Shown here piece by piece: positions 51,112-55,776 of a stretch of DNA of 64,000 bases. Both the position numbers and the translations under genes were made by a program. The notes below the pieces were generated by a model. The model searched no databases. It had not been told where the DNA came from and worked only from the letters and a program-made list of their open reading frames with translations. Each line of letters opens with the position of its first letter. Within the stretch, counting starts at the first letter, position 1. The DNA is from Pseudomonas sp. LRP2-20 (GTDB taxonomy: Bacteria > Pseudomonadota > Gammaproteobacteria > Pseudomonadales > Pseudomonadaceae), in assembly GCF_024349685.1 (NCBI RefSeq), contig NZ_AP025944.1, positions 5,411,001 through 5,475,000 of the forward strand. Direction: 5' to 3'.

Positions 51112-51988
51112 GGCGGTAGAATCGATCCAGTAGAGGTGGCAAGCCCGCGCGCCAGGCACGCGGCTTGATACCGAAAGTGTGAAGAATTTTCTTGCAGGCC
51201 AGTACCGCGTGCTGCGGCTCCTCGCTGGCATCCGGCCGCGCAGCATGGGCCTGAGGGGTCGGCGCCTGCACGGCCAGCTGACGGTACTGGCCGGCCTCGC
51301 TGAGAATCGCCTGGCCCAGCGCCAGCGGCGTGGTCGCCTCGTTGCCGGCGTAATGGTAGGTGCCCCACAGCGGCGCACTGCAATCAAGCTGCTTGAGCAC
51401 CGACAGGATCACCCGCGCGGCGTCATCGACCGGCGTCGGGTTGCCACGGCGGTCGTCGGCCAGCAGCAGCTCCTGGGGTTGCTCGGCACGGGTCAGGAAG
51501 CGGCCCAGGGCACCGTCGATGCTCTCGTCCAGCAACCAGCCGAAGCGCAGCAGCACATGCTGCGGGCATGCCGCGCGCACGCTTTGCTCGATACGCCACA
51601 GGGCCTGGCCACGCTGGCCCAGCGGTACCGGTTCGTCTTTTTCGCTGTAGGCCGTGGCCCGCGAACCGTCGAACACCCGGTAGCTGGAAGGCTGTACCAG
51701 GGTGATCTGGTGGTGCTGGCACAACTCGGCCAATCGCTCCACAGCACGCTCCTGCAGGGCCAGGCGCTGGTCGCTGACCGACTCGGCCTGGAACCAGTCG
51801 AAGTAGTAGGCCAGGTTGACCAAGGCATCGGGGCGATGATCATCAAGCAGCTGAGTGAGGCTGGCCGGGGCCCAGCCGTTCTCCGGCGGGCGCGGTGCCA
51901 GGAATGCGATGTCCTCCTCGGCCCCGAGACGAATCAGCGCTTGCCCGAGGGCATTGCCACCACCCAACAGCATCAGGCGCATACGCAT
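51104..51988 (-). CDS. RmlD-like sugar-nucleotide reductase family protein
   Basis: A 294-residue atypical SDR: Rossmann start MRMRLMLLGGGNALGQALIR (GGGNALG loop), then LVNLAYYFDWFQAESVSDQR and VQPSSYRVFDGSRATAYSEK, which parallels the dTDP-4-dehydrorhamnose reductase block, but without a clear YxxxK dyad at the usual site. It may be non-catalytic or act on an unusual substrate. It overlaps the epimerase gene by eight bases; the pair is likely one operon. Confidence 0.75.
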   Translation of the reverse strand: MRMRLMLLGGGNALGQALIRLGAEEDIAFLAPRPPENGWAPASLTQLLDDHRPDALVNLAYYFDWFQAESVSDQRLALQERAVERLAELCQHHQITLVQPSSYRVFDGSRATAYSEKDEPVPLGQRGQALWRIEQSVRAACPQHVLLRFGWLLDESIDGALGRFLTRAEQPQELLLADDRRGNPTPVDDAARVILSVLKQLDCSAPLWGTYHYAGNEATTPLALGQAILSEAGQYRQLAVQAPTPQAHAARPDASEEPQHAVLACKKILHTFGIKPRAWRAGLPPLLDRFYRHG

Positions 51989-52199
51989 AGAGTCAGCAGA
52001 TCCGAACAGGTTGATTGAGGGAGAGGGCCATTTTGCGGTTTCCTGGCCGGGAAGTCCAACACAGGGCCTGGCAACGCCCAAGGACGGTCAGGGCGTCGAA
52101 CTTCAGACGCTCAGCTCCACGTCGGAGGAAGTTTCCTACACCACCTCGAGAAACAGCTGATTTCCATCTGGCGACCTACCTCCATTGAATAGCCGACTT

Positions 52200-52218
52200 C
52201 CCCACTTGCCAAGTGGGG
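52200..52218. promoter_or_regulatory. Perfect palindrome upstream of the oxygenase cassette
   Basis: CCCCACTTG-C-CAAGTGGGG, 19 bases, ending 30 bases before the oxygenase ATG. It could be an operator or a leader hairpin; no T run follows, so it is not an intrinsic terminator. Confidence 0.55.
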
Positions 52219-52248
52219 GCTCATAAGAACAACTACAAGGAACGTTCA

Positions 52249-53289
52249 ATGCCTCATCAGGAAATCGCCTACCTGGATTTCAACCATGAACAAAACCAAG
52301 CCATATCCTGGGCAAGCCTTGCCATGGCTGCATCGGGCGGACCAGAAGCCAAAGGCGTCGCACTCAAGGCTCGCGCATTCGCTCAGGAAATCGAAACAGT
52401 CTTGAGCGATGAACAGCGTGCCATGTTGCAGCGCTTCAGCGAAGGGCAACTTTGCGCATTGATTTACCGGCAGATGCCATGTGCTGACGATCCGATGCCC
52501 GAGCAGCTACCCGATATTTTCACCCTGGCGCACGATCCTCGCTGCCAATACCTCGCGTCGCGCAACCAATTGCTGTTGGAACTGGCACGCCATCGAAACT
52601 TTGCCTTCGATATTGACAACGAAGGCAAACAAGTACGTTTGGTCGGCAACTTCAAGGGCGGCGGCCGCGTCCCGCGTTTCGGCGAAGATACCAGCGCAAA
52701 TGTTGAAACCAGCTCGCACGCAGGCCTGCGTCTGGGGCCTCACACCGAAGCGCCTTACAATTGCTCGACGATCGCCAGCCATGATCACTCCCCCGCCCCT
52801 TCAGCGCTGATCCTGACTGCACGCTGGAATCCCGCCAATGAACCCACACATGTATTCCCGCTCAGGGACATCATCAGACGCTTGGACGGACTGGAAGCGC
52901 TCGCGCTCACTTCAGCGTCCTTCGACTTCACCCGCAGTGACTGCTTCGCTCACGGACAAGGCAATGCTGGAGAAGGCATTTCCATACTGCAGTTCGAGGC
53001 CCATGGCGGATTTTCACTCCGTTACAACAGCTACCGCTTTTCGTTGAATGCGCGTGCCTGCAGTGCTGTCGCGGCCGCTTTCGAGCGCTTTCAAAAACTG
53101 CTGAGCGTCGCACAGCCACTGAGGTTCGTCCTCCAACCTGACACTGCACTGATGATCAACAACAGCCAAGCCCTGCACGGCCGCGATATCGTCCAGGACA
53201 ACCGCCGGCTGCTGATTCGCCAGTTCGGATACTCCCGTCACGCAACACCGTTGGTACGGGTTGCCGACCCGCTGCTTGTTCGTGGCTGA
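52249..53289 (+). CDS. Fe(II)/2-oxoglutarate-dependent oxygenase (clavaminate synthase/VioC-like)
   Basis: A 346-residue TauD/TfdA-superfamily oxygenase. The iron triad is His 165 and Glu 167 (GPHTEAPY) and His 310 (SQALHGRD); Arg 324 (RLLIRQFG) is placed to bind 2-oxoglutarate. The HxE variant and its spacing to the distal His resemble VioC/clavaminate-synthase enzymes, which hydroxylate amino acids or their derivatives, but the arginine-binding acidic residues of VioC are not evident. Good aagga site before the ATG. First gene of a cassette with a TSUP exporter and an alpha/beta hydrolase; base composition is less GC-rich than neighbours. Substrate unknown. Confidence 0.82.
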   Translation: MPHQEIAYLDFNHEQNQAISWASLAMAASGGPEAKGVALKARAFAQEIETVLSDEQRAMLQRFSEGQLCALIYRQMPCADDPMPEQLPDIFTLAHDPRCQYLASRNQLLLELARHRNFAFDIDNEGKQVRLVGNFKGGGRVPRFGEDTSANVETSSHAGLRLGPHTEAPYNCSTIASHDHSPAPSALILTARWNPANEPTHVFPLRDIIRRLDGLEALALTSASFDFTRSDCFAHGQGNAGEGISILQFEAHGGFSLRYNSYRFSLNARACSAVAAAFERFQKLLSVAQPLRFVLQPDTALMINNSQALHGRDIVQDNRRLLIRQFGYSRHATPLVRVADPLLVRG

Positions 53290-53306
53290 GTGAAGGAGGA
53301 CATCCC

Positions 53307-54101
53307 ATGATCGAACTCGACCTGACACTTGTCATGACACTCGCCCTGGTTGCACTGATGGCTGGGTTTTTCGATGCCATTGCCGGGGGCGGAGGCCTGA
53401 TTACCCTTCCGGTAATGTTTGTTGCTGGCATTGAGCCCTTGGCGGCAATTGCCACCAATAAATTCCAGGCGGCGTCGGCTACCGTCTCCGCTACATGCGC
53501 CTTTGCCCGCAAAGGCATGATTGACTGGAGGCGCAGCAGTCCGATGGCAATCATGTCATTTATTGGCGGGGCCACAGGGGCCTTGTCGGTAAGTTATGTA
53601 CCTAAGAGCATTCTCCAGGCCTGCATCCCGTTCCTGCTGATAGCGGTAGCCGCCTATTTCGCGTTCAGCCCAAAACCCAATGAACAAGCACGCAAGGCAA
53701 AGATATCGACTAGCCTCTTCTGCGTGGCAGTGGCTCCGATCATTGGTTTTTATGACGGAATTTTCGGCCCCGGGGTTGGCTCGTTCTTCATGCTGGCCTG
53801 CGTGACGCTGCTCGGTCAGCACCTGATACAAGCGGTGTGCAACAGCAAACTGTTGAACGCGGCCTGCAATCTGGGCGCCTTGTCAGTGTTCACATTCAGC
53901 GGAGCGATCATCTGGCCACTGGCGCTGGCAATGGCATTGGCCGCGTTCGCGGGCGCACAGTTGGGCGCACGCTGCGCAGTACACTTTGGCCCACGGCTGA
54001 TCAAACCGCTTTTGGTCTGTGTGTGTTGCATCATGGCGTTCAAACTGCTGTTCGATAGCGGCAATCCACTGGGCGAATGGTTACACAACATGTTCTTCTA
54101 A
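53307..54101 (+). CDS. TSUP (TauE/SafE) family exporter
   Basis: A 264-residue inner-membrane protein with about eight hydrophobic segments and the two TSUP half-repeats: FFDAIAGGGGLITLPVMFVA near residue 25 and FYDGIFGPGVGSFFMLACVT near residue 150. TSUP proteins export sulfite, sulfoacetate and other organic anions. It follows the oxygenase by 17 bases and precedes the hydrolase by eight, so it probably exports or imports the cassette's product. Confidence 0.88.
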   Translation: MIELDLTLVMTLALVALMAGFFDAIAGGGGLITLPVMFVAGIEPLAAIATNKFQAASATVSATCAFARKGMIDWRRSSPMAIMSFIGGATGALSVSYVPKSILQACIPFLLIAVAAYFAFSPKPNEQARKAKISTSLFCVAVAPIIGFYDGIFGPGVGSFFMLACVTLLGQHLIQAVCNSKLLNAACNLGALSVFTFSGAIIWPLALAMALAAFAGAQLGARCAVHFGPRLIKPLLVCVCCIMAFKLLFDSGNPLGEWLHNMFF

Positions 54102-54109
54102 CGAGCACC

Positions 54110-54955
54110 ATGCACTTGCAAACGGGCACTCAGCAGCGTTCGAAATGGCAGTTCGACGAACCCGCTCCGGGACGGGAGCTGTTCATCGACGAACTGTTTG
54201 AAAACTACCGCCAGCAAGCCCGCTTGCTGGTGCCTGATATCGAGCGCGCACCTCCAGTATTCGTACTGGGTGGCGCACGCTCGGACTACACCCGGCTCAA
54301 CCCTCTGATCTATCGACTGCAAGCCGCCGGGATCGGCTCGCTGACAGGCAACCTGTCCGGGCACAGCCATGCCAGCGAACCAGGGGCAGTGGCACCGTCA
54401 TTGGCTATCAACCTTGAAGAGGCCCAGCGCTTTCACGCCCATATCGCAAACCGATGCCGCACGCTCATTGGCCATAGCCTGGGCGCCGCCATCGCCCTGA
54501 AGCTTGCGGCGCGCTTGCCGCAGGTTGAAAACATCGTGCTGATCTGCCCGGCAGTCTATCCAGACGAAGCTCACCAGGCGCCGTTCGGCCCGGCATTTAC
54601 GGCGGCCATCAGCAAGCCCTATGGGTTTATGAACAGCGACAGTTACGCCTTCCTCCAACAGTTCCGAGGCAGAGTGCTGATGGTGATCGGTGAGTTCGAC
54701 GGGCTCAACTCACAACGATTCGGCAAAGCGCCGGGCACCAGCGCGGGCAACCTGCGGCTGGCCGGTAGGGACCGTTACAGCCCGATCCCCGAAGAAGTCA
54801 CCCAGGCCCTGATGCGAGCCGTTTCAGCGGAGCGCCTGCAATGCCTGTTTCTAACGGACTGCGACCATGGCATCGCCGCTCACCTGCGTACAGCTCCGGC
54901 AATTGCTGACCAGGTTGCCAACGCCGTGGAGGCATTCATCCTCGACGGCTCTTGA
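54110..54955 (+). CDS. Alpha/beta hydrolase
   Basis: A 281-residue serine hydrolase. The nucleophile elbow is GHSLG with Ser 123, the acid is probably Asp 197 (GEFDGL) and the base His 253 (DCDHGI). The oxyanion region is FVLGGARSDYTRL, unusual in having GGAR. The start at 54110 (MHLQTG) is chosen; 11 upstream codons overlap the exporter gene. It is third in the oxygenase-exporter-hydrolase cassette and convergent with the XRE regulator. Esterase, lactonase or thioesterase activity are all possible. Confidence 0.8.
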   Translation: MHLQTGTQQRSKWQFDEPAPGRELFIDELFENYRQQARLLVPDIERAPPVFVLGGARSDYTRLNPLIYRLQAAGIGSLTGNLSGHSHASEPGAVAPSLAINLEEAQRFHAHIANRCRTLIGHSLGAAIALKLAARLPQVENIVLICPAVYPDEAHQAPFGPAFTAAISKPYGFMNSDSYAFLQQFRGRVLMVIGEFDGLNSQRFGKAPGTSAGNLRLAGRDRYSPIPEEVTQALMRAVSAERLQCLFLTDCDHGIAAHLRTAPAIADQVANAVEAFILDGS

Positions 54956-54966
54956 CCCGTCAGGCA

Positions 54967-55776
54967 TCACTCGATTTCGAAGAGCCCGTTGCTCAGCGGC
55001 CGCACGCTCAGCCGTTCGCGCACATCGTCATCGATCCGTGGATCGTCCGGCCGGTACAACCTGACCTGGCGATAGGCATTGATGCGGTTGATCTCCTCGC
55101 CCAGGTATTCCCACACCACGCGGGTGCAGGCCGGGTTGCGCCGGTCGCCGCTGGACACCCCGGCCTTCAGGCCGTTCAGGCGGGTGATGCGGCTCTTGAA
55201 GCTGGGGATGAGAATGGTCTGGCTCATCTCGTTGAAGGTAAGCGACTCGTAGTCGATGAGGAACATCCGGTCCTGCAACTGGAACGCTGCGCCCAGGTAG
55301 CGGCAGCGCACCTCGGCATGCTGGTCGGTAGCGCTGGAGCGCTCCTGGCGTTCCTGGCGCTCGAACAGGAAGCGGCCGCGCTCCTCCCACAGGTGCACCA
55401 GCGACACCAGGATGGTGCCCGGTACCGACATGCAGTTGGAATACTCGAAGTAATAACCGCAATAGCGCGACAGGTTGCCAGCGTGGTCGTGCAGCGGGCG
55501 GAACAGTTCGCTGATCGGATCGCCGGGCTGGTCGGTGACGGTCGATACGCGCGCGCCGATCAAGCGGGCGAACTGTTCGGCCGGCAGGTTCAGCTCGTAA
55601 TCCTCGACACCAAAGAAATCACCGATGCGCTTGAGGTTGAAAGGCGTCGGACGGCTCTGGCCGCTCAGGTACTTGTTGAACTGCGCACGGTTGATCGAAA
55701 GCTGGCGGCAAACTTCCGAGATAGAGCGGTAGTGGCTGCAAGCCAGTTTGAGGTTGATAGCGAAATGATCGCTCAT
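54967..55776 (-). CDS. XRE family transcriptional regulator
   Basis: A 269-residue regulator. An N-terminal HTH is at residues about 18-60 (ISEVCRQLSINRAQFNKYLS then GQSRPTPFNLKRIGDFFGVE), followed by a large C-terminal domain of unknown ligand (YCGYYFEYSNCMSVPGTILV). The start at 55776 gives the HTH; the frame is open upstream. It is divergent from the AGCS symporter, which it may control, or it may control the convergent oxygenase cassette. Confidence 0.82.
   Translation of the reverse strand: MSDHFAINLKLACSHYRSISEVCRQLSINRAQFNKYLSGQSRPTPFNLKRIGDFFGVEDYELNLPAEQFARLIGARVSTVTDQPGDPISELFRPLHDHAGNLSRYCGYYFEYSNCMSVPGTILVSLVHLWEERGRFLFERQERQERSSATDQHAEVRCRYLGAAFQLQDRMFLIDYESLTFNEMSQTILIPSFKSRITRLNGLKAGVSSGDRRNPACTRVVWEYLGEEINRINAYRQVRLYRPDDPRIDDDVRERLSVRPLSNGLFEIE

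What the first reader, a model, noticed from the sequence alone, without database searches (positions are those of the whole stretch)
52249..54955. Unfamiliar cassette: VioC/clavaminate-synthase-like oxygenase, TSUP exporter and alpha/beta hydrolase
Three tightly packed genes (gaps of 17 and 8 bases) sit between conserved core genes and are visibly less GC-rich than their neighbours. The oxygenase has His165-x-Glu167 ... His310 ... Arg324, the amino-acid-hydroxylase variant of the family; the exporter and hydrolase have complete motifs. Inference: it makes, exports and unmasks or detoxifies a hydroxylated amino-acid-like small molecule, or degrades one. I know of no described system with this trio.
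Basis: partly seen in the sequence, partly recalled or inferred. Interest (0 to 1): 0.75.

Follow-up and report, generated by a model that had tools for sequence, protein, structure and literature searches.

The report
Pseudomonas amino-acid oxygenase and exporter cassette
Three small bacterial genes appear to oxidise an amino-acid-like molecule and pump the product out of the cell, and they look like one member of a little-known group of such oxygenase-exporter pairs in Pseudomonas.

The parts
52249..53289 (+). OX, 346-aa clavaminate-synthase-like Fe(II)/2-oxoglutarate oxygenase. Iron ligands His165, Glu167, His310; probable 2OG arginine Arg320; probable substrate-carboxylate arginine Arg324; acid Asp123 at the probable alpha-amino-binding position
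   Evidence: roles of the positions from PMC6224419 and PMC9513391 (passages)
53307..54101 (+). TSUP (TauE/SafE family) membrane protein, 264 aa, probable exporter of the product
   Evidence: PF01925 E 9.6e-51; intact in 45 of 45 loci with intact OX
54110..54955 (+). ABH, 281-aa alpha/beta hydrolase with Ser123/Asp197/His253; accessory member
   Evidence: distribution
51986..52248 (.). Intergenic stretch before OX, shared with the divergent rmlD-like gene; expected place of the promoter, but no sigma-70-like match there and no Rfam match

Best explanation
OX is a diverged clavaminate-synthase-like (CSL) Fe(II)/2-oxoglutarate oxygenase that oxidises, most likely hydroxylates, a small free amino acid or close derivative. 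The TSUP protein exports the product. ABH, where present, acts on an ester-like or otherwise hydrolysable form, or protects the cell. The cassette is one lineage of a wider group of oxygenase-exporter pairs in Pseudomonas in which the exporter family and the third gene are exchangeable. Shown here: predicted fold, conserved catalytic positions, constant OX-TSUP linkage across sites, the parallel TSUP pairings, and that YbaK goes with OXd. Inferred: the reaction, that the substrate is an amino acid, the direction of transport, and the role of ABH.
Against: No substrate, product or transport was measured. OX itself reaches no curated CSL profile (TauD E 5e-4, below cut-off; NCBIfam only TmpA and TMLD, E 0.0095 and 0.059), has no useful PDB sequence match, and its profile gives nothing better than E 0.024, the best two rows not being CSL enzymes by name. 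Among 40 homologues Asp123, His165, Glu167 and Arg324 are not invariant (at least 90%). TSUP proteins can carry sulfur compounds and organic acids and one affects use of alpha-ketobutyrate (PMC12671195 passages). ABH is missing from 22 of 37 sampled genomes with intact OX and occurs without OX in 18 genomes. Some related oxygenases have no transporter gene beside them: the five OXdef loci, L165 and L115, and the own genome's TauD-like L117.
Confidence: 0.6

Rival explanations
1. Antimetabolite version: the exported product is a toxic amino-acid analogue that can be mischarged onto tRNA; the exporter and the third gene are self-protection, and lineages that lose the oxygenase keep the exporter.
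For: A YbaK-type tRNA-editing protein goes with OXd. Among 11 sampled genomes with decayed OX (a twelfth, G223, is cut by a contig end) TSUP is intact in 7; OX intact with TSUP broken is 0 of 37. TSUP pN/pS is 0.03-0.09 in the five close OX-minus pairs and 0.18-0.21 in the two distant ones. Full-length OX relatives with a changed iron-ligand motif exist: P0016 (His-Thr-Lys) and P0026 (Pro-Thr-Glu).
Against: No toxicity data; the window's cassette has no YbaK; in 4 of 11 decayed loci TSUP is broken or gone too; the time of OX loss is unknown, so the low pN/pS may predate it; counts are not corrected for relatedness; the exporter may have another substrate.
Confidence: 0.3
2. Sulfonate catabolism: OX is a TauD-like dioxygenase releasing sulfite from an organosulfonate, and TSUP exports the sulfite.
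For: TSUP family name; best (sub-threshold) Pfam hit of OX is TauD; a true TauD-type oxygenase elsewhere is beside a TSUP gene (L241).
Against: OX has HxE, not the HxD of TauD (recalled for TauD); CSL enzymes lead the fold search; the acid at position 123 fits alpha-amino binding; sister lineages lie beside YbaK, a YdfG-like dehydrogenase, LysE or AzlC genes, which do not suggest sulfite.
Confidence: 0.12
3. Uptake and degradation: TSUP imports a compound which OX and ABH degrade.
For: TSUP direction is not known from sequence; kbuT of Neisseria affects use of alpha-ketobutyrate (PMC12671195 passages); in Herbaspirillum OX-TSUP lies downstream of amino-acid-transport and catabolic-type genes.
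Against: Related oxygenases pair with LysE, AzlC and MATE type genes, families known (recalled) as exporters; no regulator or downstream catabolic genes in the window's cassette; ABH often absent.
Confidence: 0.13

Closest known systems
VioC / CmnC / OrfP L-arginine hydroxylases, AsnO, KDO1 (clavaminate-synthase-like family)
   Different: 15-21% identity in the structural alignments; OX lacks the segment between the last His and the arginines that reads PRYDGxDRW in OXd and AsnO; Asn260 where several lineages have the Asp of RFD; Arg263 only in the OX clade of the 34-sequence set; paired with TSUP and no assembly-line genes
TSUP family (TauE, SafE, YfcA, KbuT)
   Same: PF01925 membrane protein; nearest NCBIfam model is YfcA's
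   Different: Below that model's equivalog cut-off (230.4 of 383 bits); constant partner is an oxygenase
AMB cluster of P. aeruginosa (LysE-type exporter with two Fe/2OG oxygenases) (recalled, not fetched)
   Same: Oxygenases plus a small exporter make and release a non-protein amino acid
   Different: AMB has peptide-synthetase genes; the present cassette has none
TauD taurine dioxygenase with TauE/SafE
   Same: Oxygenase superfamily and exporter family
   Different: HxE, CSL-type fold match, Pfam TauD below cut-off

Membership tests
Clavaminate-synthase-like (CSL) oxygenases | CSL fold | tested here: met
Clavaminate-synthase-like (CSL) oxygenases | His-x-Glu/Asp ... His iron ligands | tested here: met
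   H165, E167, H310 in the window; 34 of 34 chosen representatives with D or E
Clavaminate-synthase-like (CSL) oxygenases | Two arginines: 2OG salt bridge and substrate carboxylate | tested here: met
   R320 and R324 align with the two arginines of OXd; 34 of 34; roles from PMC6224419 passages; by alignment, not coordinates
Clavaminate-synthase-like (CSL) oxygenases | Gln/Glu at the alpha-amino position | tested here: inconclusive
   Asp123; an acid in 34 of 34, but Asp rather than Glu/Gln, and the position is assigned by alignment only
Clavaminate-synthase-like (CSL) oxygenases | Direct profile or sequence match to a characterised member | tested here: inconclusive
   None for OX alone; profile A1 gives E 0.024 at best; the link goes through OXd
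Clavaminate-synthase-like (CSL) oxygenases | Acts on an amino acid or derivative | not testable with these tools
   needs an enzyme assay
L-arginine beta-hydroxylase (VioC type) | TIGR03946 match | tested here: not met
   absent from the hits at E up to 1
L-arginine beta-hydroxylase (VioC type) | Asp pair binding the guanidinium | tested here: inconclusive
   Asn260 where several relatives have the RFD Asp; no coordinates to confirm
TauD taurine dioxygenase | HxD and Pfam TauD above cut-off | tested here: not met
   HxE; 20.5 of 27 bits
Fe/2OG halogenase | Acidic iron ligand replaced by Gly/Ala (recalled) | tested here: not met
   Glu167
TSUP | PF01925 above cut-off | tested here: met
   173.2 bits, cut-off 32.6
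TSUP | Exports the oxygenase product | not testable with these tools
   needs a transport assay
YfcA | NF007909 equivalog cut-off | tested here: not met
   230.4 of 383 bits
Alpha/beta serine hydrolase | GxSxG with Asp and His, fold | tested here: met

The most novel reading that the evidence does not exclude
Pseudomonas carries a genus-wide class of minimal, assembly-line-free cassettes in which one clavaminate-synthase-like oxygenase turns a common free amino acid into a toxic or signalling analogue, one exchangeable exporter releases it, and one matched third gene (tRNA-editing YbaK, YdfG-like dehydrogenase, esterase-like ABH) protects the maker; strains that lose the oxygenase tend to keep the exporter as immunity.
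Probability: 0.3. Interest if true: 0.82.

Novelty: new variant of a known kind. Interest (0 to 1): 0.6.

Why it matters
If right, a single oxygenase gene plus an exporter is enough to make and release a non-protein amino acid, and genome-mining tools that look for assembly lines would miss it. The coupling of a tRNA-editing protein to one of the oxygenases gives a genetic clue to what that product does, and exporters kept after loss of the oxygenase offer a testable producer / non-producer contrast.

Tried and rejected
Sequence search of OX against solved structures found nothing useful and its profile only weak matches. The plasmid collection holds no relative at the limit used. Rfam found nothing in 51900-55100; the promoter scan found one match, on the other strand, as many as expected by chance. 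PHROGs and PADLOC gave nothing for OX; for ABH PADLOC gave nothing and PHROGs a weak esterase match. I looked for the KT2440 locus by recalled tags; only the rmlD-like neighbours PP_0500/PP_0501 came up, in PMC8184846 (passages), which excludes them from rhamnose synthesis. I tried to place OX in the active-site groups of PMC6224419 (passages and sections 11 and 12); I could not settle which residue is its position P3 and drop that. A fixed trio was rejected by the ABH distribution. A recent transfer as the cause of the GC dip is weak, because relatives at the same site have none. PMC10256816 (P. donghuensis transcriptome, passages) names taurine genes, not this cassette; PMC5890197 (passage) lists a clavaminate-synthase-like gene among peptide-synthetase genes in P. 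corrugata, which I did not compare. The TSUP tree has very long branches and only five of nine own-genome paralogues; I use it only to say that the three TSUP groups lie apart and that the own genome holds a TSUPd relative. Claims of no prior description rest on searches, of open-licence papers only; most results were seen as listings.

Not examined or set aside: of the 66 genomes with an OX match, 49 were classified; of the other 17, 11 carry OXd, three OXdef and one (G001) the AzlC pair; G246 was fetched but not classified and G026 not fetched. G223 is left out of the decay count because its contig ends inside OX. Of the 12 loci, four (L007, L008, L011, L012) repeat G096, G007, G265 and G289 and are not counted again. 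Of the weak matches, L232 and L114 gave no oxygenase in my gene picks, L144 was held only as 4 kb, and G257:C9 and G070/G079 fragments were seen only as remnants. Outputs 27, 44, 58 were cut in the middle; loci in the cut parts were judged. Gene picks are my own script's; names without a Pfam or BLAST call are by eye.

Full report
What is there. OX is 346 aa, TSUP 264 aa, ABH 281 aa. They lie between a divergent rmlD-like gene and a convergent HTH gene that is followed by an agcS-type symporter gene and an asparaginase gene. TSUP is a clear PF01925 protein (E 9.6e-51); ABH matches several alpha/beta-hydrolase models above their cut-offs; OX reaches only PF02668 TauD, below its cut-off, and no NCBIfam cut-off.

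The pair. Of 298 Pseudomonas genomes 66 gave a match to OX at E up to 1e-3. I classified 49 of these and 8 further named loci (recounted); 15 of the other 17 belong to the related lineages below and two were not classified. OX is intact (at least 90% of the protein in one open frame) in 37 of the 49 genomes and in all 8 named loci, and TSUP is intact, downstream and on the same strand in 45 of 45. Sites differ: between rmlD and HTH-agcS in the putida group; after asmA-mutY-yggX in a fluorescens-type group (these three genes confirmed by Pfam); other sites in G080 (L048), G018 (L051) and Herbaspirillum (L013). A class-wide sample of 274 genomes gave only three short weak matches outside the own genome; the one full relative outside Pseudomonas is the Herbaspirillum locus. 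The own genome has 10 TSUP genes, so chance adjacency does not explain this.

Decay. OX is broken or a remnant in 11 further genomes (G223, cut by a contig end, left out). TSUP is intact in 7 of them and broken or gone in 4; OX intact with TSUP broken is 0 of 37. TSUP pN/pS against the nearest relative with intact OX is 0.03-0.09 in five of those seven and 0.18 and 0.21 in the other two. In 14 of the 45 loci, each compared with its nearest relative, OX has the higher pN/pS in 13; the exception is G009. None of this is corrected for relatedness, and the age of each OX loss is unknown.

Parallel pairs. OXd (HxD) is followed by a TSUP gene and a YbaK-like protein in 11 of 11 loci (PF04073 E 3.1e-25 for the L077 protein); a LysR gene is divergent in 10, and L084 showed none. 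In a 149-genome sample 28 loci carry a TSUPd relative at 78% identity or more: 6 have intact OXd and all 6 have YbaK; of 22 without intact OXd, one, with an OXd remnant, has a whole YbaK and another a YbaK remnant. Fisher probability 1.9e-5, uncorrected for relatedness. The window's own genome has the LysR-TSUPd pair without OXd or YbaK. OXe is followed by TSUP (PF01925 E 2.8e-42 in L148) and a YdfG-like dehydrogenase, with a divergent GntR/aminotransferase-type regulator, in 10 of 10 loci; in L155 the dehydrogenase lacks its 5' end. On the oxygenase tree OX is a clade of its own (100/100); OXd and OXe join (88/90); so TSUP pairing appears in two places, but the joins are long and the test does not rule out one origin.

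Other related oxygenases lie beside LysE (L112, L113, L164, L227, L228), a Mem_trans protein (L166, L167), AzlC (L226), an Asp/Glu-racemase-family protein followed by MFS (L233, L234, L235, L237; the racemase in two pieces in L234) or MATE (L236, L238, L239, L240), or in a cluster with ATP-grasp genes and LysE (L109, L110, L158-L161). L229-L231 have an amidohydrolase and a 312-333-aa membrane-like protein without a Pfam match. A true TauD-type oxygenase in L241 is beside a TSUP gene. Against the pattern: the five OXdef loci (L082, L089, L090, L162, L163), L165, L115 and the own genome's L117 showed no such partner.

How it most likely works. OX oxidises a small amino-acid-like compound inside the cell, TSUP releases the product, and a third gene, different in each lineage, manages a side effect. 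The YbaK coupling suggests that at least in the OXd operon the product can be charged to a tRNA. The YdfG-like dehydrogenase in the OXe operon (NCBIfam name: 3-hydroxy acid dehydrogenase; 318.9 of 411 bits, below the equivalog cut-off) would suit a 3-hydroxy product. Extending either to the window's cassette is inference.

Novelty. Oxygenase-plus-exporter logic is known from larger clusters (AMB, recalled). A stand-alone pair without assembly enzymes, repeated in several lineages with exchangeable exporters, was not found in searches, which cover open-licence papers only.

Noticed in passing
L082, L089, L090, L162, L163: A related oxygenase (343-365 aa) is divergent to a 358-414-aa protein followed by an about 1100-aa UvrD-type helicase, with an IrrE-like peptidase domain in L089 (PF00580, PF06114); PADLOC's best model for the L089 helicase is GajB. 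Looks like a possible defence locus.
   Followed up: partly
L077-L081, L083-L088: Operon of HxD oxygenase, TSUP protein and YbaK-like tRNA-editing protein, in 10 of 11 with a divergent LysR gene.
   Followed up: yes
L148-L157: Operon of OXe oxygenase, TSUP protein and YdfG-like dehydrogenase with a divergent GntR/aminotransferase-type regulator; in five genomes (G217, G077, G045, G072, G215) it lies 15-19 kb from the OX locus.
   Followed up: partly
L195 (own genome, 2.05 Mb): LysR gene divergent from a TSUPd relative (79% identity) with neither the OXd oxygenase nor YbaK.
   Followed up: partly
L158-L161, L109, L110: Related oxygenase in a cluster with an L-amino-acid-ligase-type ATP-grasp protein and LysE, and in some loci a carbamoyltransferase and a haem-oxygenase-like protein.
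   Followed up: no
L233, L234, L235, L237: Related oxygenase followed by an Asp/Glu-racemase-family protein and an MFS gene.
   Followed up: no
P0016, P0026: Full-length OX relatives with a changed iron-ligand motif (His-Thr-Lys, Pro-Thr-Glu), probably inactive; P0016 stands for 57 sequences.
   Followed up: no
L116: In a distant gammaproteobacterium a short match to an oxygenase C-terminus lies before a dehydrogenase-like gene (by eye) and a TSUP gene, with a divergent GntR-type regulator (by eye).
   Followed up: no
L013: Herbaspirillum OX-TSUP lies downstream of genes for an agmatinase-family protein, an IPNS-type oxygenase, an amino-acid ABC transporter (by eye), a class II aldolase and a hydroxyacid dehydrogenase.
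   Followed up: no
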